A stretch of 64,000 nt of DNA, from the NCBI RefSeq assembly GCF_947623445.1, contig NC_135245.1, forward strand, positions 2,239,501 through 2,303,500, given 5' to 3'. The stretch is from Clavelina lepadiformis (lineage: Eukaryota > Chordata > Ascidiacea > Aplousobranchia > Clavelinidae). Positions 708-34,525 of the stretch are shown in pieces. How positions within the stretch are numbered: the first letter of the stretch is position 1; each line of letters opens with the position of its first letter. The notes below the pieces were generated by a model, which saw only the letters and a program-made list of their open reading frames with translations, was not told the origin of the DNA and searched no databases. Position numbers and translations under genes: made by a program.

Positions 708-3700
708 TGACAGACGCTGTCTAAATTGTTCCCGTCACTACAAGCGATCGTCCCATCGATTAGATTATCTCGTGGTGGCTCGCAGGTAATGGCACGGCAT
801 GCCGGGGCAGTATCCGTCCATCTGCCGTTGTCAGCTGAGCGGAAAAACAAGAGTTTGAAATCGATAATAACACTAACTCCCACTAGCATATATGCTATAT
901 TGGGCTGGTTAAACAGCATAGGTGTTACGATTGAAGTGAGAGTACATGATATGTGCTGTTATATACTTTTGAATCGTTATTCATCATCTATCGTTCTGAC
1001 AATGTAACGAAAGATTAAAGGTGAACGAACAATCAACTTTATTACCGCATGTTGTCTGTGGACTCCCAGCGCGGAAATGTCCTCGGTCGCAAACGAAACT
1101 GCATATGCTGCCGAAATTATTTTCGTCACTGCAACTCACACGTCCATTAGCAGGCGAAGATTGCGGCGGAAGACAAAGCGTAGCTGAAATATGTCGTAAA
1201 GAATAAAGTTTTTATTCGATCTAATACTTTTGAGCAATAAATATTGGAAAATCTCCAATTAAAGTTGAATATTTAACTCTTTTTGGCGAATCGCGCTATA
1301 ACTCATAGGAAAATTGGATTAATTTGTTTAAAAAATGGGTAAATTTTGCCACTTACTTTAAATTACCTACGTAATGTCTGATTGCAAATAAATTAGTCAG
1401 AGAGGAAGATTTTCTACCAATAACATTGTACGATATGATTCAAAAACAAACTTTGATCGTTGTTTCAAACAAGCAAATGGTTTCACTAAAAAATCGAAAG
1501 CATTTCCATTCAATTTAAAACATTGATGAAGGATAAAATTCAAAAACAGAATTGTTAAAAAGAATTTAAATTTGCATAACTTTAAAAACGTTTAAGAACA
1601 AAATACTGCCAAACGAATGTAATTATTTTCTCTATACGTAAGCAAAAAATCTTTAGGCGACTGATGGCTTTGGATCCATTTCAGTAACATTTCAATATGG
1701 CAGGCAATCTTTATAAACTGTCATGCATGCAGCAAAAATTTTTGATTAATGGCTTAAATGACTACCTTTTGCCAAACGTGCTTTGAACATTGAAAGACCA
1801 ACACGATATTTGGCGGTTAAGATTACCAACTAGTTAAATACATTACAACGTGATGCAAGTGCGTGAATAAAATATGGAATAACAACTTTTAAAAATATTA
1901 CTCACGTTCACAAATTGGCACCGGCCGGTCAAAACGTACCACGTCATCATCCACGAGACCGCACGTACTGCTGTCATCACCACGAAGCTCGTATCCTTTA
2001 GAGCAAATGAGATTTGCATGACAAGCAGTAAATGCTTTTCCGTGACCGGATTATGAAACAAACAAACCTCTGTTGCAAGTGAAGCTGCAAGTGGTTCCAA
2101 TTTCTCTTCCTGAAGTCGTATCACATGACATTTGTCCGAAAATTGGTGCGCGGAGACGGTCGCATAAGGGTTCGCCGCCTAAAAAAATAAAAGCGTAGCT
2201 GAAATATGTCGTAAAGAATAAAGATTTTATTCGATCTAATACTTTTGAGCAATAAATATTGGAAAATCTCCAACTAAAAGTTGAATATTTAACTCTTTTT
2301 GGCGAATCGCACTATAACTCATAGGAAAATTGGATTAATTTGTTTAAAAAATGGGTAAATTTTGCCACTTACTTTAAATTACCTACGTAATGTCTGATTG
2401 CAAATAAATTAGTCAGAGAGGAATATTTTTTACCAATTAAATTGTGCGATATGATTCAAAAACAAACTTTGATCGTTGTTTCAAACAAACAAATGGTTTC
2501 ACTAAAAAATCGAAAGCATTTCCATTCAATTTAAAACATTGATGAAGGATAAAATTCAAAAACAGAATTGTTAAAAAGAATTTAAATTTGCATAACTTTA
2601 AAAACGTTTAAGAACAAAATACTGCCAAACGAATGTAATTATTTTCTCTACGTAAGCAAAAAATCTTTAGGCGACTGATGGCTTTGGATCCATTTCAGTA
2701 ACATTTCAATATGGCAGGCAATCTTTATAAACTGTCATGCATGCAGCAAAAATTTTTGATTAATGGCTTAAATGACTACCTTTTGCCAAACGTGCTTTGA
2801 ACATTGAAATACCAACACGATATTTGGCGGTTAAGAATACCAACTAGTTAAATACATTACAACGTGATGCAAGTGCGTGAATAAAATATGGAATAACAAC
2901 TTTTAAAAATATTACTCACGTTCACAAACTGGCACCGGCCGGTCAAAACGTGCCACGTCATCATCCACGAGACCGCACGTACTACTGTCGTCACCACGAA
3001 GCTCGTATCCTTTAGAGCAAATGAGAATTGCATGACAAGCATTAAATGCTTTTCCGTGATCGGATTATAAAACAAACAAACCTCTGTTGCAAGTGAAGCT
3101 GCAAGTGGTTCCAATTTCTCTTCCTGACGTCGTATCACATGACATTCGTCCGAATCTTGGTGCTCGGAGACGGTCGCACAAGAGTTCGCCGTCTAAAAAA
3201 ATTAAATTTTGCAAAATCATTTTTTATTTTTGAATATTCTTTTCGCAACAGAGACCCCATTTTAATTTAGTTATATGTTTTGTTTATGTGCGCTTAGAAG
3301 AAATATAAGTAAGTTAGCTGCAATTCGTACAAAAGTATATATTATTACAATTTGAGTCATAAGTCGATTTTCGGATTATTTTTGATCAAATTATTCTGCT
3401 CAGTCAAACCTTCTCCATTTTAGTTTCGTTCAACTCACGTCTTCACTCTCAATTTCGACTAACCTAAGCATCCGAGTTCCGGGGAATTACATAGGTCGGT
3501 GTCACAACAACATCGGCAAACTGAGCTCGGCGTTTTGCTGTTGCACTGGCTTGGTTGCCAGGCAGCTCGAGGATTCTTTAAAAGTATGAATAAGGCGATC
3601 ACTTTGTATTCCACGAAAACACGAAAAACTTAATAAAAATCAGCTTGCTACAGTTGGCCTATGTATGACTTAATACAATCAGTTGACGTACTTCTAAATT

Positions 3701-5218
3701 AATTATTGCATTATGTTTATTGGAGATAGTTCACCTGAATGAAGTTGTTGTCACATGCCAAAGCTTGTTTGCATCGCTTGGTAATTCTCAAACCCTGTGC
3801 ATCTCTTCGCACTTCGTTTTGACAAGCTTGCTATAAGTTTACACTGATAGTAAAGTATGTAGCTATAACAATACTCTTTTTACAGACTTTATAAGAGCTG
3901 CTATGATTCAACGAATATTACTGTGCATTACAAGCCAATCTCGAACATTTGCTGCTCTAACAGGATAGGACTACAGTCTTCTAACACATACCGTAACTAC
4001 TGCATAATACCAACAGCTCCAACGGCTGTCACGAGTTGTTGCATAACTAATATTACACGATTTAAGTGCGTGTAAAGAAGTTAGCAGATAGCAGATGCAA
4101 ACGTTACCTCGTAGTAATTTTAAATTGCGGAAATATATTGTATCATGCGGAAATATATTGTAAATGGTATCAGAGACTGAGAAAAGTCTCTCCTTATTGC
4201 ACACGCCCCTGTTGCTTGCTCAAGTTCGGATAGACTTTATTTTAGTTCTTTTTTTTAATTTTTACATCGTATTGCCCTAACTTTTATATGTTGAAGATCA
4301 TAGTTCGCTCATCAATTTCTTAAGAGTATTGCAATGGTAGCGTACCTGCTGAGCTTAACGCTTTAACCGACAAATATTTGTTAATTGGCTTATAAACTAA
4401 AACACTATCAAGTCACCTGATTCGCTTGACATCTTTGCTGTCTTCCGATTCTTTGGCAAGCTTCGTTGCTTGGTTGATTGTCGCAAATCCAACAAATCAA
4501 TCCTGTAAACACAAAAATGCTACCCACTATATACTCCACAATCAAGGAATGTTTTCTTACTATACAAAAGTTCTATTACGCTTTCAAGTTGATTTTTGTT
4601 ACAGTATTTAGCATTGCGTGAACAATCGTTTCAAACGAGTTTGTTTAACTTTTGTCAAACATGAAAATTTGAATTGTTTCATCACAAAATGTTGTTGACG
4701 AAACTTGTTTTGTTTTTTAAATAAGTTTTTTATTCAAAATTTTGAAGGTGAGTTTTGGCAACAAAGTTATTTAATAATGAAATGTTTGACAAAATATGCA
4801 CTAAAAATGTGAAATATTGAAAGATTTCAGTTGCGATATTAACAAGAAGGTGTTTAAATAAAGTTATTAAAGTTATTAAAGCTATTTTAAAAGTTATGAA
4901 CAAAACTTAATTCAAACAGCACTAACAGAAAATGCGTAAAAACGCGAAATAGAGTTCTTTTATTGTTCCGGATGATCCGATAAAAAATCATCAATTTTTA
5001 AATATGGAGAAACGTAAGAGGTAAAACTGTTTTTATTTCGTTATCAAATATTTAATAACTATTGCTTGACATTTATTACTTGTATTATAACGTATGTCAA
5101 ATGCTATATAATCGTTATGTAGATATTTATTCACTTTAAAGCACGTACCTTCGGCTCGATATGCTGACAACCAAAAATAGGCCAAAAAGCCAACGAGTAG
5201 TAGATAAAGTTTTGCCAT
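708..5218 (-). CDS. Gene A: secreted three-finger/sushi/(VWA) protein, 5' part only; 3' end lies off the left edge
   Basis: Exons in transcript order, assigned from splice sites and homology to B and C: 5149-5218 (signal peptide, starts [17 protein letters not shown]), 4417-4502, 3735-3830 and 3464-3575 (three-finger domain ending in the Ly6-type CCCDTDLCN signature), 3082-3192 + 2920-3009 (sushi 1), 2068-2178 + 1906-1995 (a duplicated copy of sushi 1), 1046-1183, 708-834 (next modules). The last visible exon ends in phase 2 at a GTGAGT donor, so the gene continues leftwards; by homology the missing part should hold more sushi modules and the VWA domain. An upstream in-frame Met exists, but the chosen Met gives the better signal peptide and has counterparts in genes B and C. 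A TATA-like box lies about 60 bp upstream. Expected to be secreted; molecular partner unknown. Confidence 0.8.
1175..2189. repeat. Tandem duplication of a sushi exon pair in gene A, copy 1 (~1,015 bp)
   Basis: 1175-2189 is near-identical to 2190-3204 (offset about 1,014). It contains both exons of one sushi module and their introns, plus the acceptor and first 9 bases of the next exon. Gene B has this segment once. The junction sits in an A-rich stretch near 2180-2192. The exon pair is phase 1 at both ends, so the duplication adds one whole module in frame. Confidence 0.9.
2190..3204. repeat. Tandem duplication of a sushi exon pair in gene A, copy 2
   Basis: Partner of 1175-2189. The copies differ by scattered substitutions and a 2-base length change in a TA repeat, so the event is recent. 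Its left edge carries a non-functional fragment of the following exon (2190-2198) with its acceptor; splicing there would meet a stop within a few codons, so it is a potential decoy site. Confidence 0.85.
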
Positions 5219-6256
5219 TTCGCACAAAGATTTTGCTACAGTGTGCACAACTGAAAGCAGAGCATTGAGTCGAAGTTTAAATACCCCATCCCAACAGAAT
5301 TAACATTTCACAAACCTTAAATATTTTTAGAATATCTTTTTGTGTCCAGACATTTGTCGTGGTCTTTGTTGAAAAATAGTAATAAGCGAGCAGAACTTGT
5401 GGCCAAAATAAATTGGAGTCGGAAGAGCTTTGATTTATGCAAATTGCTCTTCAAAGACGTCAATGACATTTTGTGATCGTGTTGTCGCTTCGTGTTATAA
5501 CGCCTCATGGCCAGTTATATATATCTGCATTATTCGTTGATGCTGTGGTATTTTCATTAAATAGTTGAAATACATCATATAGGAGTAGTATAATGCTTTA
5601 CATTTTGGTTACATTTCTCATATTAATTCCCCTTAATTACTTTCTATACTTTCAGTCTGTTAAAAAAGATTTTCCATTTATTTTTAGCTTTTTTGACCAA
5701 AAATATTACAGGAAGCATATCATAAGGTTTCGCTGTTACAACAGAAGCTCTGTTTTTTAATTACAATTCTACGCTATATTACTCACGCTGGTTGACTGGA
5801 CCTTAACTTAATTCATGCTTCGTTTTTTCTTAAAGTTACTAAACGAGTGATTAACAACTGTCCTCATAAAAGGTGTTCATTAAGCGAGCGAGTTGCGTCG
5901 TTCACAAAAACAGCAGGACCTGGCTTATGAGCAAAAACAATTGCTGGTTTGCAACTTTCTGATGCGAGGTTATCTTGTACGCACGTGAACTTCACACAAC
6001 AATTTTATTTAAGTTTTTTTTATTACATTTCACTATTCCAGAAAACATGATTTAAAAATGCGGTGTATTATCCATGTTCGAACATATTGACACATAAATT
6101 AACGAATAGTCTATATTATAAAATTTACAACTCCAACAGGTTGTCAAAGGGCAAAATATTTACTTTTGATTTCTTGTTTGATTGAAATAATAATATAGGC
6201 GGGATGTCATGATAATGAACATCAAAAACAACAAGTGCTATGTCGCTAAGTGGAGT
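5219..6256. other. Spacer between genes A and B
   Basis: About 1.0 kb with the gene A promoter on the right side and the gene B 3' UTR on the left. Minus-strand AATAAA hexamers near 6,004-6,024 are candidate poly(A) signals of gene B, some 240 bp past its stop. No other gene is seen. The spacer is almost unchanged between the two duplication copies (compare 15,881-16,914), which argues for recent duplication, not functional constraint. Confidence 0.6.
5276..5283 (-). promoter_or_regulatory. TATA-like box of gene A
   Basis: TATTTAAA read on the minus strand, 58 bp upstream of the gene A start codon. The same motif at similar distance precedes B and C, and TATAAATA precedes D. Confidence 0.5.
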
Positions 6257-9200
6257 TTAGACTGGTCTTGGATCGTCAGCGCACGGATCGCCACAGATCC
6301 TATCGCTTAGAAGGCCAGAGAAGGCTTGATCAAGACCTTCGAAACCTCCTTCTGCAATGATGAGGTTATCTTCCACCCCAGCGATATCGAGCAACTGGTC
6401 TCTATCCAGTGAACCACGTGGTGGAACAATACCAAGGGCGTAGGTCTAATTTGAAAATATTTTGTTAGATTTAATTGTAAATCATTGTAAATCGTTGAAT
6501 TATTTATAAATCTATATTTGATTAATGTTGTAGTGCTCAACTTAATAACCACATGGTGAATAAAGTCAAGTTTTTTAAAATAAACACTTTCGAAAACACT
6601 TCGCAAACTCACCAAAACTCCGCTATTTCGTAAGTCGTTTGCAGCTTCTGTTAGAATGTCTCCATCTTGCGCTCTCCCGTCGGTAATTACCAACATAACA
6701 TTTCTTACACCAGGTCTGTCTCCGTTGGCTTGGTTAAATATGACGTCTCTAGCGTGCTCTAATGCTTGTCCAGTCCTTGTACCTGCAGCAAACATCAACA
6801 ATTTAGTTTGATTGTCAAGCTTTTATTAAGTCAAGGAATTTAAAGGTTTTAACTGGTTGTCATAGTAATTCCGTTCTTTTGGACGTAATCACGTGTTTTG
6901 CAAAGTTTTGCAAAACTTCACAGAAACAAAATCCGTTTATACCTCGTCCGTCATACGGGATTGCGTCAAATGCTCTCAGGAAAGCGTCTTGGTCTTCAGG
7001 GAAATCATTGAGAAATATTTGGGTAGCAGTGTCGACAAGAGCGTTGTAACGGAATACTGACATTCGTGCCGCATCCGTAGCGAGAGTAAAAGAGCTGTTG
7101 TGATTGATATATGGAAAAATTTTAAATGATTCCAAACTCAAAACTTTTGACGAAAAGCAAAGTATTGTCACAACATTTGCATGAACTTGATTTTATATGG
7201 TTATGCAACTTTTACAGGTGAAGTAAACACTAAACAGCTTCCAACCTCAGAATGTTTCTCACGAATTGCTTCATTGTTAACCAGTTGGCTCCTCCAATAG
7301 ACGAAGACGAATCCATGACGACGACAAAGTCCATTTGCGCAAATGGAGGGCAAGGACCTAAAAAATAAACTTGTAGCTAAACTGCAACAACTAGATTTTT
7401 ATGGTTTAAATTTAGAGGCAATTGGTAAACAATTTTGCTGATAATGCGACTAGTTATCCACAGCACATTTATTATTCACACTGTTGCTCATTGCGATAAA
7501 GTTGTCAGATTTTCAATGATAAATAATCATGTCACTTACGGGCACAACATGGCCTTGGTATACTCCAGGTGCTATCATTGAGGCACGTGTTCTCGAAAAG
7601 GTCTGGAGGAAAGAGACTGTAACCATCGGCAGTACATTCAAAGACGCAGTTGTTGTTTGCCAAAGTACCGTCTCCGTCACACCTAACTTCGCCATTAAGG
7701 AGTTCTTGCTCTAGGCACCGGTTGGCTGCATGGACATTTTACGATTTAACTTTAAAAAGAGTGTCCAGACGATCAACACAGACCTAAATTTCTTTTGCTG
7801 ACAACCGTGATATAGCTTGTGTAAACGTTTTACTGTGTGGTATAATCTTCGCCGCACAAAATCAAACCATTATACAGGTCACAAAGCAAGCTTGCGCACG
7901 GGATTTAGCAAATGGTGAGGTTTCGTACTTACGTTGGCAGACGGGTGCTGGATTATCCCAAACGTATTCGTCTTCACCGTCTTGCACACAAGTTGTGAGT
8001 AAAGTTCCAACTCTGGTGTGGAATGGGTCACAACCGTACTCACAAACAGATCCCAGCAAATTGCCATTGTCGCATACCATGAAACCGTTAGCTGGGGCCG
8101 GGGGTGGATCACTGCAGGTTATTCCTTAAAAAACTCCCTTATTAGCAATTCCATCACATTCAAATGTGAAACTGCAGGAAAAGTGTGACAGGATCGAGTT
8201 TAGCTGCAAATCGCTGATACTAGCAGTCAGTACTCAGTAGAAAAAACGTAATTTTCAAACCTTTATTTTTCAGTCAAATTGTTCCTAATGTGTTTATGTA
8301 AACTTACTTCTGCACTCTGGCGCAGGTTCAGTCCAAACACCGGTGGCGTCGCCATCTCGATCATCCCGGCATGTAGAGGTCGGGGAGCCGATGAGATCCA
8401 AGTTTTCACCGAAACATTCAAAGGTGCAAATGCTTCCTGCTCTGTTCTCGCTGGTGCAAGAAGCAAACCCGTTAACGATTTCCGTGAAAGGTGGCTCGCA
8501 GGTTATCGCTAAAAAAGAAATGCGGTATAGTAATGATCAGCTTTGCACTGGATACGACTGTCTTTACATTTTTTGAACTGCTTTTATGATAAAAGTCCAC
8601 CAACTGACTAGCAACTGCAAGCACGTTGGTGCAGCTACTATAGGTCGCAGTATGACTTACGTTGGCATGTGGCAGGAGGGTTTGTCCATTCTCCCAAACG
8701 ATCGTTTTGAGCGTCGTCACGGCACTCGGTTATCGGTTCACCCGATACGTAATAGTTACGATCGCAGATATATCTAAAGGGAAGAAAATTTTAGTTTGTT
8801 TACAAAAAACGTGTTTATGCAGCATATTTAGCTCATAGTCTACACCAACTTGGGGTTTTAAAAGTCAGCATTACTAGATAGGGCAGGCAATAAAGATAAC
8901 AAATGCAAAATCATCCCACCTGCACTCGCTTCCAAGATTGTTTGCATTGGAGCAACCGACAAAGCCGTTCTCAGGATTACTCTGGGGCGGTAAGCACACG
9001 ATTGGAGCGCACATAGGAGCCGGGCTGCTCCATACGCCTTCAGAGTCGCCATTGAAATCATCTTCACAAACAGAAGTTGATGATCCATCCAGATAAAATC
9101 CATCCAAGCAAGCGAATCTGTAAAAACGTTTCAAATTAATTAACAATATTTTACGACGTTGTAGTTGTAGAAGCCTATGAAACATGATGATCTCCTTACT

Positions 9201-12200
9201 CGCAAACACTTCCACCGACGTTGCCATTGGAGCAATCAACGCTCCCGTTTCCTGGAGCTACGTGAGGTGGAGGACAGGTTATTGGCCTGCAAACTGGAGC
9301 CAGAGAACTCCATTCGCCAAACTGGTCACCATTGTTGTCATCGATGCAAATTGACTCGGGCGTTCCGTCCAAGTAGTAGTTTGGATTGCAGGAGAATCTA
9401 TAACAATTGCAAGCGACGTTAAAATCAGATATGGAGCAATCAAGTTACGTGAAATAGATTGACATTTTCAATACCATAATATGTTAAGTGCATTAATTTT
9501 TGGGTTAATTAAACTAACTATATAAACCGTGCTGTTAATTTTACCTTGTGATTTGACTTACTCGCAAATGCTGTCTAGGTTATTTAAATCAGAACATTGG
9601 ACCAAACCAAATTCCGGATCGCTGTGGGGTGGTAAACAAATTACTGGGACGCAGGACGGCGTCGGATTGGTCCATACGCCTTCAGCATCTCCATCACCGT
9701 CATCAACGCAGGTTGAAGTTTCGGCGCCATTCAAGAAGTTACCTTCATTGCAAGAGAACCTGCGTAAAAATTACGGCGTTAGTTAACGTTGTCTTAACGT
9801 TACACTTATTACAAATCTCAAAGCAATAAGCGATTACCGGCATTCGCTGTTCAAGTTGATGCCACTGCTACAGACAACGGCGCCGTTTTCAGGTGCGTCA
9901 AGTGGGGGAGGGCAAGTTATGGGTGTGCAGAACGGAGGAGGTTGTGTCCAAACTCCAAACACGTTACCGTCGCCATCATCAACACAGGTTGAAGCCACTG
10001 GACCTTGAAGGGAGTAGCCTTGGTCACAAGCAAACCTGTAAGGAAAGTAAGTCTTTAATGATAAGAAAACTATTCGTCTTATAAACTACCACTTTACAGA
10101 AGTTACAATTGTTTTAATATTTAAACATGAGTAAGAAAATCAACAGAATAAGTGTAAAGCAAACTATAAACAAAATTAACCAACGTGTATAATTAACATT
10201 TGTACTTGTGCGAACACAATAAACAAACAAGTGTAGCAGTCTCTATGAAATAAGCGTACTAGCGAATAAGCAAAGTACACACAGATGTTCTGTACTAACA
10301 AACAAAAACACTTCTGCCTTCAGACATATTGGAAATTAGTGGCAGAGGCAAGATGTAGTATTCACCTGCAAGTGCTCCCTTCGTTGATTGCATCGCTGCA
10401 ATCCTGGACACCGTTCACTGGCGTGTCCAGTGGCGGAGGACAAGTGATGCGGAGACAAATAGGTGCAGGAGCAGTCCAAACTCCTTCAGCATCACCGTTA
10501 CCATCATCGACGCAAACCGAACTTTCAGAACCCTCCAACGAATAACCAGCATCGCACGTAAAACTGTCAAGATAAGTTCTTATAAATCGCTTGTTTGTTT
10601 AATCATTAATCTAAATCTATTAATTAATTTTGAAGCTTGTCAAAGAATATTTTTGTTAATGGTAGTAGGTTTTTAAAGATGTGTAACTCCAGGAAGCTGT
10701 GTTATAGTTGGTAAAGATGAAGACAAAGCGCAATGTTTTGTGCCAAGAGTCTACGCAAGAGAATCTCACCTACAATGATACTTGCTTCACTGATATCGTT
10801 AATGCAAGAAATATTAATATGTGTAACTATAGGTCTATATTGATCAAAACATACCAGGATACGGATCACCAGATCCACCCTTTACTATAGAAAGATCCTG
10901 AACCTCAAAAATTTTTGCATTTATAGACCTATGGTTAACGCGCTTGAGATAACAAATCTTGCAAACGCAAAGCTAATTGAATGCAGTTTATATATAACAA
11001 AACGAGTAACTTTAACTAACCGAGTTATATTAAGAAATGATTTTAACACACTGCTTATAATTTAATACTGTTCTTCTAAAAGCTAAAACTTGAATAGTGT
11101 AAGTTACAGATTTTATTGAACAATTTATAAATCATTTGGTGAAAGAAAAGGTTTATATTGCTTATATATACTTACATGTACTCTGTGACACTTACCGGCA
11201 TTCACTATTCAGATTATTTCCATTGTTACAAGAAACATCGCCGTTCTCGGGCGCTGATTGTGGCGGAATACAAGTAATTGGAACACAAGTTGGCAGACCA
11301 GTACTCCATTCACCCACGCTATCAGCATCAAGGTTTTCGCAAACAGACTCAGTTGGTCCAATCAATGCAAATCCTTCACTGCACTCATATCTGCATGGAA
11401 GGATTTTGTCAACGTGAACAAACAAAAGGTTTTTGAAACAAAATGCTCATAATTTCTGAATTAAACTACTGTATATTTGCGTTTGTTATGGGCACAAAGT
11501 TTTTGTTGAAAGTTTTAAGAAGTCCTTTTATATTTCTTAAACCAACAATTTTCTCACATCTTATGTGATTATGATTGGCCAATCCATTGCCTTATTGCCA
11601 CACCGGTTGGATTTTCTTATTTCTGCAAGAAACCCAAACGCCCCAAAATGAACATACATGATACTGGTCGTGATGACATGACGGAGACATTTGTTATAAA
11701 AAACTGATACTTTTTTATGAAATGTGTGAAGGAAAACTTAAGTGCATTGATTAAGTTACTAATTAATATTATTATTCGTAATATTTTGCTTGTGTGAAAC
11801 AAAATCTTAAATGAAATATATTTTAAATTTTGGGCTGAGTATAAGCACTTAGCTGGTATCAATATCACGGTTCTCGGATATACTTGTTTTCCCCAAGAGC
11901 AAGTACGTTCATTTTACAAATTTTGGACATATATGTTTAACGTACATTTGTATAGTAAATCGGGTCACCAAAGTACAATATTTTGCGCAAAAAATTTAGT
12001 TCGCGGCTTAAGAAGAAGCAGCTTGAAAGCACTGGTTTAGACAAAACCGGCAAATATAGAATAGTAAAGGATTATGGCGAGTTTACAGGAGGAGATTTGT
12101 GATGTTGAGGTGAAGATTAAAAACTTTAATTTATAGGTTTAAATATCTGTTAAGTTCCTGAACATATCATTTGTATTGTGTAGTGATTTTTTATACTCAA

Positions 12201-15200
12201 TTAGGATATTGCTTTGATAAAGAACGATGTTATAGTATAAAAGTATATATATAGTTAGTGGCTTAATAGCAAATTAAAAGGGCTATGATCCTTGCTGCTT
12301 TAGCTGTTAAACTTGCAACTAAGTGTCACTTACAAGTGATATCAACTCTACAACTATATTCTACTGACAAAGAGCAAAGTTTTAAACCAACACTCACTGA
12401 CAGACGCTGTCTAAATTGTTCCCGTCACTGCAAGCGATCGTCCCATCGATTAGATTATTTCGTGGTGGCTCGCAAGTAATGGCACGGCATGCCGGGGCAG
12501 TGTCAGTCCATCTGCCGTTGTCAGCTGAGCGGAAAAACAAGAGTTTGAAATAGAAAATAACACTAACTCCCACCAGTATATGTTTGTTATATTGGGCTGG
12601 TTAAACAACATAGGTGCTACGATTGAAGTGATAGTCTATGAAATGCACTGTGTATACTTTTGAATCGTTTATTCATCATCTATCGTTCTGACAATGTAAC
12701 GAAAGATTAAAGGTGAACGAACAATCAACTTTATTACCGCATGTTGTCTGTGGACTCCCAGCGAGGAAATGTCCTCGGTCGCAAACGAAACTGCATATGC
12801 TGCCGAAATTATTTTCGTCGTCACAACTCACACGTCCATTAGCAGGCGAAGATTGCGGCGGAAGACAAAGAGTAGCTGAAATATGTCGTAAAGAATAAAG
12901 AACCCTTACCATCTAATACTTTTGAGCAATAAAGATTTAAAAATCTCCAACTAAAAGTTGAGTATTTAATTCCTTTTGGCGAATCTCGCTATAACTCGTA
13001 GGAACATTGAATTAATTCAAAAAATGGTTAAAATTTGCCACTTACTTTAAATTACCTACGTAATGATTGTTTTCAAATAAATTAGTCAGACTGGAAGATT
13101 TTCTACCAATGACATTGTACGATATGATTCAAAAACAAACTTTTATCATTGTTTCAAACAAGCAAATGGTTTCACTAAAAACTGGAAAACATTTCCATTC
13201 AATTCAAAACATTAATGAAGGATGGAATTCAAAAACAGAATTTTTAAAAAGAATTTAAATTTGCATAACTTTAAAAACGTTTAAGAACAAAATACTGCCA
13301 AACGAATGTAATTATTTTCTCTACCGAAACAAATCTTTAGGCGACTGATGGCTTTGGATCCATTTCAGTAACATTTCAATATGGCAGGCAATGTTTATAA
13401 ACTATCATGCATGCAGCAACAATTTTTGTTTTGTCATGACTACCGTTTGCCAAACGTGCTTTGGACATTGAAATACCAACACGATATTTGGCGGTTAAGA
13501 ATACCAGCTAGTTAAATACATCACAACGTGTTGTAAGTGCGTGAATAAAATATGGAATAACAACTTTTAAAAATAATACTCACGTTCACAAACTGGCACC
13601 GGTCGGTCAAAACTTGCCACGTCGTCATCCACGAGACCGCACGTACTACTGTCATCACCACGAAGCTCGTATCCTTTAGAGCAAATGAGAATTGCATGAC
13701 ATGCATTAAATGCTTTTCCGTGATCGGATTATAAAACAAACAAACCTCTGTTGCAAGTGAAGCTGCAAGTGGTTCCAATTTCTCTTCCTGAAGTCGTATC
13801 ACATGACATTTGTCCGAAAATTGGTGCGCGTGGACGATCGCACAAGGGTTCCCCGTCTAAAAAAATAAAATTTTGCAAAATCATTTTTTATTTTTGAATA
13901 TTTTTTTCGCAGCAGAGACGTTGTACGTTGTTGTACGTTTTGTTTATGCGCGCTTAGAAGAAATATAAGTAAGTTAGCTGCAATTCGTACAAAAATATAG
14001 ATTATTACAATTTGAGTCATAAGTCGATTTTCGGTTTGATTTTGATCAAATTATTCCGCTCAGTCAAATCTTCTCCATTTTTAGTTTCATTCAAGTCACG
14101 TCTTCCCGCTCAATTTCGACTAACCTAAGCATCCGAGTTCCGGGGAGTTACAAAGGTCAGTGTCACAACAACATCGGCAAACTGAACTTGGCGTTTTGCT
14201 GTTGCACTGGCTTGGTTGCCATGCAGCTCGAGGATTCTTTAAAAGTATGAATAAGGCGATCACTTTGCATTCCACGAAAACGCGAAAAACTCTTAAAAAA
14301 CAACTTGCTACAGTTGGCCTATATGTATTACTTAATACAAACGGTTGACGTACTATTAAAAATATTTATTGCATTACTTTTATTGGAAGTAGTTCACCTG
14401 AATGAAGTTGTTGTCACATGCCAAAGCTTGTTTGCATCGCTTGGTGATTCTCAAACCCTGTGCATCTCTTCGCACTTCGTTTTGACAAGCTTGCTATAAT
14501 TTACACTGATAATAAAGTATCTAGCTATAACAATACTCTTTTTACAGACTTTATAAGAGCTGCTATGATTCAACGAATATTACTGTGCATTACAAGCCAA
14601 TCTCGAACATTTGCTGCTCTAACAGGATAGGACTACAGTCTTCTAACACATACCGTAACTACTGCATAATACCAACAGCTCCAACGGATGTCACGAGTTG
14701 TTGCATAACTAATATTACACGATTTAAGTGCGTGTAAAGAAGTTAGCAGATAGCAGATGCAAACGTTACCTCGTAGTAATTTTAAATTGCGGAAATATAT
14801 TGTATCATGCGGAAATATATTGTAAATGGTATCAGAGACTGAGAAAAGTCTCTCCTTATTGCACACGCCCCTGTTGCTTGCTCAAGTTCGGATAGACTTT
14901 ATTTTAGTTCTTTTTTTTAATTTTTACATCGTATTGCCCTAACTTTTATATGTTGAAGATCATAGTTCGCTCATCAATTTCTTAAGAGTATTGCAATGGT
15001 AGCGTACCTGCTGAGCTTAACGCTTTAACCGACAAATATTTGTTAATTGGCTTATAAACTAAAACACTATCAAGTCACCTGATTCGCTTGACATCTTTGC
15101 TGTCTTCCGATTCTTTGGCAAGCTTCGTTGCTTGGTTGATTGTCGCAAATCCAACAAATCAATCCTGTAAACACAAAAATGCTACCCACTATATACTCCA

Positions 15201-22900: not shown

Positions 22901-24613
22901 CTGGCCTCATCACCAACCAGTCGGTATCCTTAATCAAAAATGAAAGTTTAAACGTCAATTTGTAGCGACTGTGGAGAGTTAACATAACAATGATAGAAAA
23001 GGTATCATCAAATATTATTAACACCAAGATCATTAGTAACTAAATCAATTTTAATTGAAAACTTCAATGATACAAACCTGGGTTGCACGTGAATGCACAG
23101 TTAGTGCCAACTTCTCTTCCTGATTGGCTGTCACATTCGATCTGGCCGAAGCGAGGTGCTCTGATGGCATCGCACCTGGGTTCGGCGTCTATAACAAAAC
23201 ATCGAGAAAACTTGACCAGATATATGAACACGGTTTTTATTTTTAAGACATGTCTCTGGTTTAACCAAAACCTTGTAAAATACGCAATGTTGTTGTTGTT
23301 TTTGTTGGTTACATTTTAGAAATTATGTCTTGCCATCTTCTATAATCTATACTAACCTAAGCATCCGAGTTCCGGGGAATTACATAGGTCGGTGTTACAA
23401 CAACATCGGCAAACTGAACTCGGCGTTCTGCTGTTGCACTGGCTTGGTTGCCACGCAGCTCGAGGATTCTGTATTTATAAAAATTATCTCTAAATTTTCG
23501 ACATACGACAATATAATGTAATTTATAATGCATGTGTAATCTATTCAGTCCTTCGAGGTAGCATCAGCAATGGTTTACCGCCTAAATGTTCTTTATATAC
23601 ATCTACTCCAACTGCGCATTTCTATTTAAAATTTCACCTGTACAAAGTTGTTGTCACATGCCAAAGCTTGTTTGCATCGCTTGGTAATCCTCAAGCCCTG
23701 TGCATCTCTTCGCACTTCGTTTTGACAAGCTTGCTAAACATCAATCAACCACAAAAAATACGACGTTTAGGGCCATTTTCCTATTTTTTGAGCTATTCGA
23801 AGACCACGCAACTTGCATAACATCGTGAGAAAATTTCTTGTCCCTCGAAATAATTGACCTATTACATTATACTCTGCACGAATTCATACGTTCACTCATG
23901 AATTATAATGCGTGCGTTATACGTCGGTAGCTCAAGTCAGGTTGATTATTATGGAACAATGTGATGCTTGAAGCAATTGGGATAACGAAGCATTGTTACT
24001 GTAATATAATGTTTATTTTACATATAATGTCAATTAAATTTGCGGATTAACGAAAAAAATGTCAATTTTGTCGCTAACAAATGCAGACATCCCCCAACTT
24101 GTACCTCATTCCTTTGACATCTTTGGCTTCTTCCATTTCTTCGGCAAGCTCGATTGCTTGGTTGATTTTCGCAAACCCAACATTCCAAACCTAAATATTA
24201 ATTGCAATTATATACCATTAATATATGGGAGCGTAAAATGAAATTTTTTTTGGATAAATGTTATAAATTTCTTAAAATGTGTTAAAAATTTCAGACATTT
24301 TGCAGCTTTTACCAATAATATCTGAGATTATATATCAGCCAAGTACAAAGCTTTGTAAATTGTATAAGCCTACAACGATTTTAAGTTTATATACGCGAAT
24401 AGTGCAAGTCTTCTGTATAAAAATATTGCATCATGGTGAAAAGCAATGCAGTTAAATGTAACACTATACAAGAACGGATTTACCAAATAGCTAAAATTAC
24501 AAAACTTTAATTTTTCAAAATTTTCATCCTCACTTCGACGTACCTTCGGCTTGAAGAGCAGAAATCCAAACGTAACCCAAAAAGCCAACCGCTAACAAAT
24601 AAAGTTTCACCAT
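16915..24613 (-). CDS. Gene C: secreted three-finger / 12 sushi / VWA protein, 1110 aa, 22 exons
   Basis: Exons: 24544-24613, 24105-24190, 23638-23733, 23357-23468, 23078-23188, 22839-22928, 22028-22165, 21749-21875, 21443-21640, 21042-21239, 20495-20692, 20219-20416, 19855-20052, 19575-19772, 19316-19428, 18963-19163, 18589-18780, 18196-18381, 17902-18013, 17601-17752, 17271-17440, 16915-17103. They total 3,333 nt in frame. Signal peptide [20 protein letters not shown]; three-finger domain ending CCCNTDLCN; 12 sushi modules; VWA with intact DSSSS, GTRTG and ITDGRAQD; C-terminus as in gene B. Exons 9-22 are almost the same as in B apart from exon 9; exons 1-8 are clearly diverged, as expected if only the 3' part lies inside the duplicated block. 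Most mid-gene exons are 198 nt, phase 2 to phase 2, each coding the second half of one sushi and the first half of the next. Role inferred as for gene B. Confidence 0.82.
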
Positions 24614-27600: not shown

Positions 27601-27615
27601 TGCTGGAATTTTCAC
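24614..27615. other. 3.0 kb spacer between genes C and D
   Basis: AT-rich with no domain I recognise. Two minus-strand open stretches (25,715-25,978 and 26,186-26,470) have no recognisable family, no clear splice partners and ordinary AT-rich composition. The gene C promoter is at the left end. No repeat shared with the rest of the window was seen. Confidence 0.5.
24670..24677 (-). promoter_or_regulatory. TATA-like box of gene C
   Basis: TATTTAAA on the minus strand, 57 bp upstream of the start codon. Confidence 0.45.
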
Positions 27616-30600
27616 TTATATTGATCTAGGATCCTCAGCACAAGGATCGCCACAGATCTGTTCACTAATTTGATTGGACAGAAGCCCGGTGAGACCTTCG
27701 AAGCCGCCCTCTGTAATGATGACGTTATCCGTGTTACCGGCGATGTCATTCAGTTGGTCCAAGTCGAGCCCACGGCGAGGTGGCACGACGCCAAGGACGT
27801 AAATCTATTGACGAAGCATAAGTTAAGCAACTGATCCTACGTCTCCTGCTGATTCCATTGTCAACGAAATAGGGAAAATGGTTTGAAATTAATCGTACGT
27901 AAACTGTTATAATGTCATAAGGCTATGACATTGACGAAATCTACGTCGTCTACAACAATAATATCGTGAGGTGAGCGACTTAAGTAATAAAAGTTGCCGA
28001 AGGTCACGACCCTACAGCTGATTCTGCATTTAAAGCAAAAGCAAATTTTAGTGCCTTTCAGTAAGTACGTATAATCCATTCTTGCAATAGCAGTGTTGGT
28101 ACACCGCTTACCACAACTCACCAAAACACCGTCATCTCGCAAACTTTGAGCAATACCAGCAACATCGTCTTGAGCCCTTCCATCTGTAATTACCAACATG
28201 ACATCCCTAACATCGGGCCGATTTCCGTTTCCAGCCGCGAAAATGACATCCCTTGCGTGGCGGAGTGCGTTGCCTGTTCTGGTGCCTGGGACAGAACAAC
28301 CATTACTCAATTAGTTCCGTTCATTTAGAACAAAGACTTTGTTAAGCCATCAAACCAGTCACGTACCCCTTCCATCGTACGGGATGTTATCGAAAGCGTT
28401 AATAAAGGCGGCTTGATCGTCAATAAAGTCACTCAAAAGAATCTGAGTATCCTCGTCAACTGCCCTGTTGTAGCGGAAGACAGACATCCTGGCCGCATCA
28501 TTCGCCAACGTGAATGAGCTGTTAAAAACATAAAAATATAAATTTTCGTTATTTTGCAGCGAAAGCAGAATCATCCAGTTTTGACTCCACTCGAGAGGTC
28601 AAATTATTTATTAGCAGCGGAATAGAATGTCAACGCTATACAGCTTTAGGGCACTCTTTTATTTGAATTCTCAATTCTTAATAAATCTTAATTGAGCAAT
28701 GAACCATACTGTATTAGCTACACCATGCGGTGAACTCAATTTGTGGTATCATATATAGAGCGATACACACGCTTACAATCACATCGTTAGTGTATTACTT
28801 TAAAATTGTTCTGACAAAATCAGTCATTGTTATCCAATTTAAATCTCCAATGGAAGATGACGAGTCCATAACAACAACGAAATCCATGACAGCAAACGGT
28901 GGACACGGTCCTATAACGAAGATAACCATTATCAATTTTCAATCAATATCTTACTATAATACCTGAATATTTCACAAACATGAATTATTTTAAGGCATTC
29001 GGATGGCCAAGTTCCGTTAGGTAATTTATATTCCACTAGATAGCTTACTTCTGCAACAAGGTCTTGGAATAGACCAGGTTGTATCATTGAGGCAAACGTT
29101 CTCGTCCAAACCAGGCGGAAAGAGCTCATAGCCAGCATCAATACATTCAAAGAAGCAGGTTGTCTCCGGGTGAGTGCTGGATTCCCCTTCACATACCACC
29201 TGCCCACGCGGAAGAATCTGCTCCGGACATCTGTTCGCTGAATAACGGATCAAGTCATAATGCATGATGTCTTGATGTGTAAGGTCAAACGACATACGGC
29301 AATGAAGACGACAAAATCAAAATATTTTATAGAAATATTTTTATAGAATATTTCTACTGCACAGAACTGCACTTACGCTGGCAGGAGGGTGGAGGGTTGT
29401 TCCACGATCTCTCTCCGTTTGATCCAGCAACGCAGGTTGTGAAGAGCGGACCGATCCTAGTGTGAAATGGATCACAACCGTACTCGCAAGACGATCCCAG
29501 GCTAAATCCCGGCCCGTCTCCGCAAACTATGAAGCCATTGTCAGGCGCGGGCGGCGGATCGGGACAGGCGTTAGCTAAACAAATAGTTTGTTTCATAATC
29601 GGTTGGAAAGTTTAGCGAAATAACTTCTTGCAACCTCTCGAAAAATAAATATTTTGTTTATGTCTGCAACCTTGTGTCATTTTTATTAACATAGAAAACT
29701 TAATACCTCGGCAAAGGCTAGGAGGCTCCGACCACTCTCCAAACTGGTCATCGTTGCTATCATCCACACAAGTCGTTGTTCCACTTCCAACCAAATCAAA
29801 GCCAGGATCGCAGGTAAAACTAGACAATGCAACAGAGACAAGAGGAAAATCAAGTACAACTGTTTTGTGATACAATTGAATCCAGTTTGTATTGGCAGTC
29901 ATAGACACACTATACTCACGTGCAAGTGCTTCCAAACAAATTGGCGTTGCTACAGAAGACCAATCCATTCTCGGGGCTGTCCTGGGGTGGAATACAAGTG
30001 ATAGGGAGGCAGGTTGGAGGCGGATCACTCCACTCGCCTTCGGCATCTAGGTCTCCATCATCCCGGCAAATTGAACTCTGGGATCCCAGCAAAAAGAAAC
30101 CAACGTCACAAGAGAATCTGTTACGTCGCAAAAGTAGAAGTTAAACATTACGGTCACGGTTCTTTTTAATTAAAATAGTTATAAAAATATCTTTATTTGG
30201 GCTGTTTTCCAATTTAAAAAGGGTAAAACACCGCTTTTTAAGTAATAAATATAACACTCAATGTTCACGGTAATAAGGTTTTATTAGAAGGATAATTATC
30301 GAACCCGTATACCTGCATTCGCTTCCGTCGAAATTGTCGTTTGAGCAAGCAACGCTACCATTATCGGGGTCAATGTGGGGCGGGGGGCACGTCAGTGGGA
30401 CGCAAACTGGGGGCAGAGAACTCCATAGACCTTGAACATCGTTGTCAAAATCATCTTCACAGATTGACACTGGTTCGCCTTGCAAAGCGTAACCCTCATC
30501 GCACGCAAATCTAACCGAAAAAACGATCCATGTAAATCAAGTTTAGGTTTTCCCTAGGCCGTATAGGCAAATGAGACACTTGCCCATGTAAGCGTTCAGA

Positions 30601-33600
30601 AACTTTGGTACAAAACATTTTTTAAAGTAATGTGCTAAAGTATATACATGTAACAACATGCACAATCCGGGACGTGCTTGATTGCATTTGCCTTTTATTT
30701 TACACAGCAATGACCTCCCGTTAAATAAATTGCTTAAACCATGTGAAGAAAATGATACGAATTAGTTTTTAACTAATTATAACGTTTACCGGCATCGACT
30801 GTTTTGCAAATTTCCATCGCTACAGGCAACTTGGCCATTTTCGGGATCTGTATGCGGAGGTGGACATGTAACAGGAGCGCAAGTGGGCGCTGGAGCGCTC
30901 CAAATTCCCTCTCCGTCGTTATCAAAATCATCTTCACAAACCGAAGCCGGAGAACCTTGCAAGAAGTAGCCCGCATTGCAGGTAAAGCTAAAAAATATTT
31001 TGGAGTGATGTTTGATTGTTGTGCTTATATATTTCCGTGCAACAAGTCTTTAAACAATGACAGCAATTCCATGTTATAAATGGTAATTGTCTTTTCACTG
31101 TCTTACTAGTTAACTAGTTTGGTATAACTACAGTTTATTACATGACATCTGTCAAATCACTTTGATTGACATGTCAACTTACTCGCAAACACTGTTCAGG
31201 AAATTTCGGTCAGAGCAGGAGACTACTCCGTTTGCAGGCGGAATATGCGGAGGAGGACATCTGATCCGGATGCAGAACGGAGGTCTATTGTCCCACTCAC
31301 CATTCCCTCCTAAGTAAAAATCAAGAATGTTGCTGGGACCACGAGCTAATATGTGGAACCGGGCAATACATACAACTTATCACTTGTTTTTAATAAGCAG
31401 TTTTTTCACATTGGCTTAACTAAAACGCTGTTAAAAAGAGCATTTACGTGAATTTCAAACAGCAGTCTTAGTACAGCTGGTAACCGCAGCATAATTGCTG
31501 AATATTAAATTGTTATGATTGCGTAATGAGAAGTTATACCGCAGGTTGTTGCGTCATTTCCGCTCAAGTAGTACCCTTCGTTACAGGTGAAGTCACATAC
31601 GCTGCCGATGTTGTTCCTGTCGCTGCAAACAACGTCTCCGTTAGATGGCGCACGTTGACCAGGTTGACAAGCAAGAGCTGTTGAGTAAACAATTTGAGAA
31701 AGAATTTATTAAGATTCTTTTCATTTTACTTAAGACATTCTTGTGGGTCCTGCTGGAAACGATTTCAAAATAAGATCTTGGCCAAAATTTGTGTTATTTC
31801 TTTGCTGCATACCACCACACGTTGTTTATAAGTCGTGATTCATTCATAGCGATTTACGGCATTTGCAGAGCACGAACAATGGGCTAAAATGTAATTTAGG
31901 CCGGAAATCAAAACAAAAAACCACCAAACCTATCATACGAGGCATGTTTTTAATAAACGACGACTTTTTGTTTACTGCAGCGTCGATCACGACACCTTAA
32001 GCCAAGTGTTCTGGTACCTGGTGCCAAAAGGTCTATTAAGCAAGGCAAAAAGAAGAAAAACGTGTTTAATGATCACTTCAGGATATCCTGTCGTCCTTAA
32101 GATGATTATTTACATTCAGATATGTTACTGCGAAACCATTTTAACTCATTAAGTCGTGGTTGTTTTTATAAGGGCATTCGAAATTCCGTTATTGTTTAAA
32201 TATAAAGTTAAAAAGGTGCTATCACGTACGTAACGTTTCCAGATATTTGTGAATCTCGAAATGATTGAATTATTGCCTACATTGCACCTTAATCACAGTT
32301 AAACTGCATTAAACCTCAGAGCTTGATATAATCAACACTTCAAGCCTAATTCATAAGATGTCGAACACATCAATGTGTCCTTCAAACGTTTAACTACAAC
32401 AAGATTGGCAAAATAAGGGTTTTCAAGTTGAGATAATTGTGATAATAATGGATACAATAATCAATTGGATGGCTATGATTGCAGTGAAATTGATTTGTCC
32501 GATTGAAAAAAACTCTAGCGTTAAAGTTTTTCATTAAACTTATATGTGTAACAGGATGTTAAGACGACTGCTTGTGTATAGTATTTGTACGGGTTTTTGT
32601 AGACTTTTGCAAATTTTACTGTAAGTAAATTTAAAATTTGCCCATAACTGGCTTTTTAAAGCTTCTTTCCGAACAGCCAAATCGTGTTTAATTCTGTTGG
32701 TATTTTGTGAAGATACTAAATTTAGTTCTAAAAAATAGTTGTCAGTAGATTCTACAATTTACGATAAAAACGATTTTAACGGTGCAGATTTTAACGGTGT
32801 ATTTGCAGTTCGTTGCAGAGTATTTTCTTTTCAACTTTTGTGTGCTACAAAAATTGACTGCGTCGCAACAACGTCTGTAAATTGGAGACGTTAACAGTAA
32901 AAACCAACAAGAGCATAACAACACAGCTTGGTCAATTATAAGTTGACTTTTTATCTTTTAAATGTTAAACAGAGAAAACGTGAAGGCCTGAAATTGATAC
33001 AAATATTAATAACGGCTTTGATTCAGAAGTTAGCAATTTTTACTCACATCTACAGACGGGGGGTGGACGATCAAACCTCGCCTCTCTTGTACGTCTATTC
33101 ATCGCACATGTGGTGGTGTCATCACCAAACAATTCATAACCTTTTCAAAATAGAGCAATTGCATTGGTTGTCATGCAAATAACGCGATCAATAGATAGAG
33201 AAACTACACTTCGACATCAAGAAATAATACAAAGATAATAATTAGATGGGCAGAGGCGGCAAAAAGCAACTCTTTTTACCTTCGTTACAGGCAAAGTTGC
33301 AATTTGTTCCAACAGAAGTACCCGGCTGGTTGTCGCATTCCACTGAACCAAAACGCGGTGCCCGGGCAGGGTTACATTGGGGATTTCCTGCAAGAAATAT
33401 GGGCGTAGTTTTTAGTAAAAATGAAAGCGATTGTATTATAAAGACGATGTAGAAAAAGATATAAGTTTGATCTCAAGGCAAATCTTTAACATGAATCAAA
33501 ACTAACAAAAAATTAGTCGATTATATATTATATAACATATAGTTAGGCCTACAGAAAAAACGAAATATCTCATGGCGTTATTTTTTTATCCGAACAGGAG

Positions 33601-34525
33601 AACTGCAGAAGCGTAGAAACGCTGCAGTCCATTATTTTACGTTTTACTCATATAAACTTGAAAGCAAAACAACAAAAAAGAAAATTAACTCGTTTATAAA
33701 ACCGACGAACTTACGATTTAGGCACCCCAACAAGGGTCTATTGCAGCGGTCAGTGCTGCAGCAACAACGACAAACAGAGTTGTCGACTCCTCCATTGCAT
33801 TGGCTAGGCATCCAAGCGGAACGCGGGTTCTAGAAATTAAAACAATCTTTTACTACTTTTAGCTAGGCTTACAGGAAATGGTTTTCGGAACATTTTATTT
33901 AAATACAGTGTATAAGCTAAAATAAACATGTAACTTGAAACTAGAGACCACTAGCACCTCACCTGCACAAAGTTGTTGGAGCAAGCAAGACCTTCTTTAC
34001 ATCTTTTTCTCACCAAAAGACCAAATGAATGTCTTCTGACTTCGGTTTGGCAAGATTGCTAAAACAATATATTTGTTTGACCGATCAGATTTGTTGATGA
34101 CCACTATAGCTTTTGACACGTTCTCTTGCCCGCTACGAGCTTGTCAAAATGCGATTTCTCTATCGTTCTAACACAGAGAGAGAAGATTTCTACTGTAAGT
34201 AATTTTAAAACTTGCTTCGTTTGACCGGCACATTTGAAGTCTTCCATTTCTATGACAGTCTCTGTTGCTCCGTTGATTTTCACAAGTAAAACAGATCAGA
34301 CCTGCAAACGTTAACACACATATGCTGGTTATAATCGGTTGCTTAAAGCTTGAGCTGCACTTCTGATAACAGCAAATAACCAGAGTTACCAAATTTTCAA
34401 ACAGAATCGGGGATGGTCATAGCTACTTTTTCATACGTTTTCTACAAAGACGAACCTTGTGCAAAAAAGGCAGAGTTCCAAGCGTGAAGAAGAATTGTTA
34501 ACGAGATCACAAACAACGATCTCAT
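27616..34525 (-). CDS. Gene D: secreted three-finger / 8 sushi / VWA protein, 847 aa, 18 exons
   Basis: Exons: 34456-34525, 34216-34301, 33963-34058, 33715-33829, 33280-33387, 33048-33140, 31540-31677, 31183-31309, 30790-30987, 30313-30510, 29920-30117, 29707-29819, 29377-29574, 29049-29237, 28799-28910, 28367-28518, 28122-28285, 27616-27804. They total 2,544 nt in frame. Signal peptide [16 protein letters not shown]; three-finger domain ending CCCSTDRCN; eight sushi modules; VWA with DSSSS, GTRTG and ITDGRAQD; tail [13 protein letters not shown]. Compared with B and C it lacks three tandem 198-nt exons and the single-exon module preceding the last two, and it is the most diverged member. The intron after exon 2 appears to use a GC donor (GAA|GCAAGT), which I judge more likely than an exon extension. 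Spacing and orientation match a head-to-tail family. Confidence 0.8.

What the first reader, a model, noticed from the sequence alone, without database searches (positions are those of the whole stretch)
708..34525. Tandem family with a three-finger / multi-sushi / VWA architecture
Four adjacent genes encode signal peptide, one Ly6/uPAR three-finger domain, 8-12 or more sushi modules and (in B, C and D) a C-terminal VWA with intact MIDAS, with no membrane anchor. Each domain family is known, but I do not recall this order as a described protein class: factor B has sushi-VWA-protease, SVEP1 begins with VWA. A young array of such secreted proteins is what one expects of a rapidly evolving recognition, immune or gamete-interaction locus, perhaps analogous to sushi-rich proteins of tunicate allorecognition. 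Domain calls are read from sequence; the role is inference.
Basis: partly seen in the sequence, partly recalled or inferred. Interest (0 to 1): 0.85.

Follow-up and report, generated by a model that had tools for sequence, protein, structure and literature searches.

The report
Secreted three-finger, sushi and VWA proteins
A sea-squirt chromosome carries a run of related genes for secreted proteins that join a three-finger (Ly6) head, a rod of sushi modules and a metal-binding VWA head; the same design recurs at many other places in that genome and looks like an undescribed class of extracellular linker proteins, whose job is not yet known.

Summary
On the minus strand at 708-34525 lie four tandem genes. 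B (22 exons, 1109 aa), C (22, 1110 aa) and D (18, 847 aa) are intact: signal peptide, one Ly6/uPAR (LU) domain, 12, 12 and 8 sushi modules, C-terminal VWA with intact MIDAS, no membrane anchor found. A is a truncated, frameshifted copy without VWA. Contig lengths identify Clavelina lepadiformis, chromosome 6. The array belongs to a genome-wide family: 23 of 42 LU places have a VWA within 20 kb downstream on the same strand (random placement: mean 0.09, maximum 2 in 1000 trials), and 19 genes (16 outside the window) show LU, sushi, VWA in order. LU exons are bounded by phase-1 introns; at one locus LU sits beside EGF and VWA. LU is LYPD1/LYPD6-like; VWA resembles collagen VI, byssus matrix protein and integrin alpha-1, not factor B. 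B is a hybrid of A-like 5' and C-like 3' halves. Ka/Ks is 0.035-0.27 by segment where measurable, so rapid diversification is not supported. Best reading: secreted two-headed extracellular adaptors built by exon shuffling. Tissue and partners are unknown; other tunicates could not be searched.

The parts
27616..34525 (-). Gene D: 18 exons, 847 aa; signal peptide, LU, 8 sushi, VWA
33715..34301 (-). Gene D LU domain, exons 2-4 (34301-34216 with GC donor, 34058-33963, 33829-33715)
29049..33387 (-). Gene D sushi exons (8 modules)
27616..28910 (-). Gene D VWA, four exons, MIDAS intact
16915..24613 (-). Gene C: 22 exons, 1110 aa; signal peptide, LU, 12 sushi, VWA
23357..24190 (-). Gene C LU domain, exons 2-4
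18196..23188 (-). Gene C sushi exons (12 modules, counted from exons shared with B)
16915..18013 (-). Gene C VWA, four exons, MIDAS intact
6257..15880 (-). Gene B: 22 exons, 1109 aa; signal peptide, LU, 12 sushi, VWA; hybrid of A-like 5' half and C-like 3' half
14125..15164 (-). Gene B LU domain, exons 2-4
7540..13856 (-). Gene B sushi exons (12 modules)
6257..7357 (-). Gene B VWA, four exons, MIDAS intact
708..5218 (-). Gene A, truncated: signal peptide (5218-5149), LU (4502-3464), sushi exons to 708; continues left of the window with a frameshift; no VWA
1906..3192 (-). Tandem copy of the first sushi of gene A (3192-2920 and 2178-1906)
2190..10814 (.). Tandem duplication unit, copy 1 (3' half of B plus 5' part of A), 95.6% identical to copy 2
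12867..21485 (.). Tandem duplication unit, copy 2 (3' half of C plus 5' part of B)

Best explanation
Genes B, C and D encode secreted, two-headed extracellular adaptors. Shown by sequence: a signal peptide, an N-terminal three-finger LU domain of the LYPD1/LYPD6 type, a rod of sushi modules, and a C-terminal VWA whose MIDAS residues are intact, with no anchor found. Shown: they belong to a dispersed family of at least 19 genes in this genome with the same order, both ends conserved and the sushi stretch varying widely in length; predicted introns before and after the LU domain and before the VWA are nearly all phase 1. Inferred: the VWA binds a matrix or cell-surface ligand through a divalent metal ion, the LU domain binds a second protein partner, and the sushi rod sets the distance, so the protein bridges cells, or cells and matrix (tunic, vessel, blood cells or basal matrix). 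Inferred: the class arose by exon shuffling of an LU module next to sushi and VWA, then spread by duplication; in this array unequal crossing-over made B as a hybrid of two neighbours and left A as a remnant.
For: Intact spliced models B, C, D. Sushi and VWA by Pfam in B and D and in 3 of 3 paralogs scanned whole. LU profile to LYPD1/6/6B. VWA best to collagen VI alpha-3, byssus PTMP1 (7e-26) and integrin alpha-1; no factor B or C2 among the 50 matches at E 0.001. Of 15 locus groups fetched because LU and VWA hits lay close, 13 hold 15 genes in the order LU, sushi, VWA, one more does with VWA exon 2 undetected, and one is an EGF mix; no profile hit on the opposite strand in these groups or the window. 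Census at E 0.01: 23 of 42 LU places with VWA downstream, random mean 0.093, maximum 2 in 1000 trials, 0 with VWA on the opposite strand within 20 kb. MIDAS DxSxS 19 of 19, threonine loop 19 of 19, TDG aspartate 18 of 19, the last in a shortened hit. Intron after LU phase 1 in 14 of 15 called (16 LU ends seen), before LU in 11 of 11 called, before VWA in 13 of 14 called; same in B, C, D. Hybrid B: introns 1-8 are 44-59% identical to C, introns 9-21 87-100%.
Against: No transcript, protein, expression or binding data; splice sites are predicted and several models are split or fused. The LU domain is weak against Pfam: 5 of 6 paralog LU domains scanned alone pass no cut-off. LU and VWA distances across the 19 genes are only weakly correlated (Spearman 0.249, 178 of 2000 permutations as high), so descent of both ends as one gene is not shown by that test. 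19 of 42 LU places have no VWA downstream and 35 of 58 VWA places no LU upstream. The profiles were partly built from the same loci, so detection there is partly by construction, though order is not. A divergent copy at C7:19091 has lost the TDG aspartate. That the VWA binds matrix is inference from relatives.
Confidence: 0.6

Rival explanations
1. The array is a polymorphic recognition locus (immunity, allorecognition or gamete interaction), in which the proteins act as secreted recognition molecules and diversify by recombination and selection.
For: Tandem array, hybrid gene B and remnant A show recombination; the 5' sushi part of B and C is strongly diverged (Ka 0.41, synonymous sites saturated). 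Sushi-bearing proteins are tied to polymorphism in other ascidians: fester and FcoR (passages), vCRL1 (passage). [quoted passage not shown]
Against: Ka/Ks 0.035 (A/B signal plus LU), 0.15-0.18 (A/B sushi segments), 0.26 (B/C sushi exons 10-18), 0.12 (B/C VWA), 0.27 (B/C signal plus LU), 0.33 (B/C whole); end domains conserved across the family; no anchor or signalling tail found; the passage read says vCRL1 was shown not to be involved in self/nonself recognition.
Confidence: 0.22
2. The proteins are LYPD-like signalling modulators: the LU head acts on receptors (as LYPD1/LYPD6 relatives act on nicotinic receptors or Wnt co-receptors, recalled) and the sushi-VWA part only places it in the matrix.
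For: Closest solved relatives of the LU domain are LYPD1, LYPD6, LYPD6B.
Against: The third-loop signature shared by the family is not visible in the LYPD1 alignment; no receptor data; LYPD proteins are GPI-anchored single domains (recalled).
Confidence: 0.12
3. Degenerate complement factor B/C2 relatives that lost the protease.
For: Sushi followed by VWA is the factor B core (recalled).
Against: No factor B or C2 chain among 50 PDB matches of the VWA at E 0.001; no protease match in B or D; an N-terminal LU and 8-12 sushi do not fit three sushi modules (recalled).
Confidence: 0.03
4. Separate neighbouring genes for LU, sushi and VWA parts, joined wrongly by prediction.
For: No RNA evidence seen.
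Against: One open frame through 18-22 exons with standard splice sites; the gap between last sushi exon and first VWA exon is 182 bases in B and in C; the same order recurs at many loci and no LU place has a VWA on the opposite strand within 20 kb.
Confidence: 0.03

Closest known systems
LYPD1 / LYPD6 / LYPD6B (Ly6/uPAR family)
   Same: LU domain; profile E 2.6e-7, 1.2e-4, 7.1e-4 against their solved structures
   Different: Those are single-LU proteins (recalled); here LU is fused to sushi and VWA
Mussel proximal thread matrix protein 1, collagen VI, integrin alpha-1 I domain
   Same: Best VWA matches; MIDAS
   Different: No LU and no sushi rod in these (recalled)
SVEP1
   Same: Secreted, many sushi, one VWA (recalled). 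A Ciona gene is annotated with the SVEP1 name (KH.C4.450, passage); whether it has an LU domain is unknown
   Different: VWA is at the N-terminus and EGF/pentraxin present (recalled); here VWA is last and LU first
Complement factor B / C2
   Same: Sushi then VWA (recalled)
   Different: No protease, VWA not closest to factor B, LU present
Ascidian sushi proteins fester / FcoR / vCRL1
   Same: Sushi modules, ascidian; fester and FcoR are multigene families (passages, passage)
   Different: Fester and FcoR have Ig and transmembrane parts; no LU or VWA named in the passages read
Oikopleura house oikosins with CCP or VWA
   Same: Tunicate secreted matrix proteins with sushi or VWA domains (passages)
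   Different: No LU named in the passages read; not compared by sequence

Membership tests
Ly6/uPAR (LU) domain | Sequence match to the family | tested here: met
   PF00087 above cut-off for 3 of 3 window LU domains scanned (B, C, D) but for only 1 of 6 paralog LU domains; profile to LYPD1 2.6e-7
Ly6/uPAR (LU) domain | Conserved cysteines ending in a CC....CN motif | tested here: met
   Fourteen cysteines and the terminal CN invariant in 13 of 13 aligned copies
Ly6/uPAR (LU) domain | Three-finger fold | not tested
   Spliced proteins did not fit the stated rule for structure prediction, so none was sent
VWA with MIDAS | DxSxS, T and D metal-site residues | tested here: met
   19 of 19, 19 of 19, 18 of 19 genes; a further divergent copy at C7:19091 reads TQG in place of TDG
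Sushi/CCP | Pfam Sushi above cut-off, repeated | tested here: met
   12 and 8 stretches in B and D
Complement factor B/C2 | Trypsin-like protease after VWA | tested here: not met
   No such match in B or D at E up to 1; the protein ends just after the VWA
SVEP1 | N-terminal VWA with EGF and pentraxin | tested here: not met
   VWA is C-terminal; no pentraxin match and no EGF match above cut-off in B or D (cEGF in D at 13.5 bits, cut-off 26.6)
Allorecognition receptor | Membrane-bound, highly polymorphic | tested here: inconclusive
   No hydrophobic stretch typical of a membrane span outside the signal (best 19-residue mean 1.17, at the VWA start of D); no GPI predictor was run; polymorphism not testable on one haplotype

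The most novel reading that the evidence does not exclude
In this tunicate the LU (three-finger) domain is a true mobile module: carried on exons bounded by phase-1 introns, it has been combined with sushi and VWA in about 20 genes and with EGF and VWA at another locus, founding an undescribed class of two-headed secreted linkers in which a sushi rod of very variable length separates two binding heads, used as an extracellular adhesion or recognition repertoire.
Probability: 0.4. Interest if true: 0.75.

Novelty: new variant of a known kind. Interest (0 to 1): 0.6.

Why it matters
[quoted passage not shown] A tunicate family that mixes LU with sushi, VWA and EGF in many genes is a clear case the other way, in the sister group of vertebrates. 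It also gives a set of genes whose length varies by exons between two conserved ends, so the idea of a molecular spacer can be tested directly. If the proteins prove to be tunic or blood-cell adhesives, they add a class to the tunicate matrix; if they prove polymorphic, a new recognition locus.

Tried and rejected
Factor B relationship: rejected on VWA matches and lack of protease. Separate genes: rejected on frame, intron sizes and recurrence. Positive selection: Ka/Ks gave no sign, but few sequences were compared and synonymous sites are saturated for B/D and for the 5' sushi exons of B/C. Co-descent of LU and VWA by distance correlation: inconclusive. First census (26 of 46) included some weak LU and VWA rows that I had picked partly because they lay near each other; I replaced it with uniform E 0.01 cut-offs (23 of 42) and rest claims on that. 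Both lists were typed by hand; those searches score only the best candidates, so counts are lower bounds; the length used for C2 came from the paper, not from a call on the genome. The 15 locus groups read in detail were chosen because an LU and a VWA hit lay close, so they are not an unbiased sample. Pfam PF16975 against the genome found nothing, nor did its control genomes, so it says nothing. tRNA and Rfam scans of the window: none. The acidic sushi loop was looked at only in passing. Other tunicates could not be searched with these tools.

Papers: PMC10884593, PMC3390340, PMC12065747, PMC9265791, PMC6600238, PMC7407461, PMC8704543, PMC12212465 and PMC8495957 were seen as found passages only; all others as search listings and abstract starts. 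The statement that the architecture was not found in print rests on searches (one search was for the organism) of one open-access library.

Full report
Source. The window is contig C6, 2,239,501-2,303,500, of a 209.06 Mb genome in 95 contigs. The lengths seen for C1, C3, C4, C6, C7, C8 and C9 (28.78, 25.73, 25.07, 20.77, 20.45, 19.51 and 15.73 Mb) and C5 (24.62 Mb) fit, to 0.01 Mb, the chromosomes of the same number of Clavelina lepadiformis kaClaLepa1.1 (PMC10884593, passages). C2 was not seen; the paper gives 210.1 Mb in 102 scaffolds, slightly more than held here. So this is an ascidian, chromosome 6.

What is there. A translation of the minus strand shows cysteine-rich open stretches across 0.7-34.5 kb. 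Models from a simple exon-chaining script, then set exon by exon, give four genes. B, C and D read through 22, 22 and 18 exons with no internal stop. Introns are GT-AG, but for a GC donor after D exon 2. In D, exons 4 and 5 are 33829-33715 and 33387-33280. Each begins with a hydrophobic signal-like stretch; no other 19-residue window exceeds a mean hydropathy of 1.17, and that one lies at the start of the VWA of D. A has the same kinds of exons with one extra copy of the first sushi, ten exons in the window, then leaves it; the next exon is frameshifted, and a tblastn search of 40 kb further left finds no VWA exon (one 13-residue stray at E 0.29).

Domains. Pfam reports 12 sushi stretches and one VWA in B, 8 and one in D; C has the same exons as B. 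In whole proteins the LU domain reaches no Pfam cut-off; scanned alone it passes PF00087 in 3 of 3 window genes scanned but in only 1 of 6 paralogs. A profile of 13 LU copies from this genome matches LYPD1 (2.6e-7), LYPD6 (1.2e-4) and LYPD6B (7.1e-4) among solved structures. The VWA (sequence of gene C) matches collagen VI alpha-3, mussel thread matrix protein PTMP1 and integrin alpha-1 and alpha-2; no factor B or C2 is among the 50 matches at E 0.001.

A family, not just an array. Searching the genome with LU and VWA sequences gives, at E 0.01 and after joining exons, 42 LU places and 58 VWA places. Of the 42 LU places, 23 have a VWA within 20 kb downstream on the same strand (20 of 38 outside the window); 11 have one upstream on the same strand, as tandem copies would give; none has one on the opposite strand. 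Placing LU at random gives a mean of 0.093 and a maximum of 2 in 1000 trials. 19 LU places have no VWA downstream and 35 of 58 VWA places no LU upstream, so both domains are also used elsewhere. Fifteen groups of loci picked for such pairs were read with profiles made from the family. Thirteen groups hold 15 genes in the order LU (three exons), sushi, VWA; a fourteenth shows the order with VWA exon 2 undetected; one (C7:15315) is a mix of VWA, EGF and LU. Two further loci hold partial or variant versions (C7:19091, C5:6497). With B, C and D this makes 19 genes. Sushi-exon hits, which are not the same as modules, range from 1 to 28. In the models the sushi before the VWA ends in a double cysteine in 14 of 15 genes (my reading of that output; the exception is C8:17099).

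Exon shuffling. In the models the intron after the LU domain is phase 1 in 14 of 15 cases with a called boundary (16 LU ends seen; the exception, phase 0, is at the EGF-bearing locus), the intron before it in 11 of 11 called, and the intron before the VWA in 13 of 14 called. B, C and D agree. Sushi modules in the middle of B and C are cut by phase-2 introns, so that 198-base exons each hold the end of one sushi and the start of the next. At C7:15315 LU lies directly after EGF modules, twice within one predicted exon (EGF by Pfam). A review doubts that LU is a mobile module (PMC6600238, passages); this family speaks against that, at least for this animal.

History of the array. Window 2190-10814 matches 12867-21485 at 95.6%, and -1100 to 2192 matches 10599-13870 at 91.7%. 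The breakpoints lie inside genes: B shares its 5' part with A (signal plus LU Ks 0.10) and its 3' half with C (Ks 0.035-0.055), while B and C introns 1-8 align at only 44-59% and introns 9-21 at 87-100%. The simplest account is a hybrid made by a tandem duplication of about 10.7 kb. Ka/Ks by segment is 0.035-0.27 where measurable, and 0.33 for B/C as a whole; the 5' sushi part of B/C (Ka 0.41) and all of B/D have saturated synonymous sites and cannot be judged. In a tree of LU plus VWA, B, C, D and a gene 0.45 Mb away on C6 group together (support 0.93; A, lacking VWA, was not included).

How it probably works. Conserved heads at both ends, an intact metal site and a spacer that varies by exons suggest a secreted bridge: VWA to a matrix or cell ligand, LU to a second protein. 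Matches to collagen VI, byssus PTMP1 and integrin I domains lean to matrix. Binding, partners and tissue are inference. A recognition role remains possible but has no positive support here.

What is new. Nine searches of an open-access library for the architecture listed no paper that describes LU-sushi-VWA; two of them returned no paper at all. Ascidian genes with sushi and VWA annotations do exist, for example a Ciona gene under the SVEP1 name and a Botrylloides blood-cell marker; whether these carry LU I could not test. Subscription journals and database annotations were not covered. Each domain is known; the combination and its scale are the novelty.

Noticed in passing
window 37119-60955 (minus), continuing to about 83 kb right: Tandem array of actin genes; six minus-strand copies inside the window, four of them (49326, 53130, 56932, 60578) spaced 3.6-3.8 kb, then plus-strand copies from 64052 on (Pfam Actin 5.8e-85 for one predicted copy).
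   Followed up: partly
window 1-36000, minus strand: 22 of 26 sushi second halves carry a loop with three or more acidic residues, such as DDGNGDAEG, between the third cysteine and the tryptophan, against 3 of 28 in eight other sushi loci; among family loci it is common only at C6:1786 (5 of 8). It resembles a calcium-binding loop (recalled).
   Followed up: partly
L034-L035 (C7:15315001-15330000): VWA, EGF, LU and sushi-like exons mixed in one locus, with LU directly after EGF in one predicted exon twice.
   Followed up: partly
C3:20733781-20802120 (+) and C3:20983393-20992757 (-): Eight weak single-exon LU-like places in an array with no VWA found near them, possibly ordinary Ly6-type genes.
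   Followed up: no
C8:18.6-18.9 Mb: Very dense sushi hits with apparent large duplicated blocks about 79.4 kb apart, judged from coordinates.
   Followed up: no
left flank, window -1316 to -3471: Further sushi exons ending in a stop without VWA, including a 471-base direct duplicate at 98.7%; perhaps a remnant of an older member.
   Followed up: partly
L046 (C5:6497501-6503500): Variant order LU, sushi, VWA, sushi, VWA, sushi.
   Followed up: partly
flanks at window -38394 to -15589 and about 85-94 kb: Neighbouring predicted genes: a HOOK-like coiled coil on the left (Pfam HOOK 28.2 bits, under its cut-off of 35) and an EF-hand plus C1 protein on the right.
   Followed up: partly
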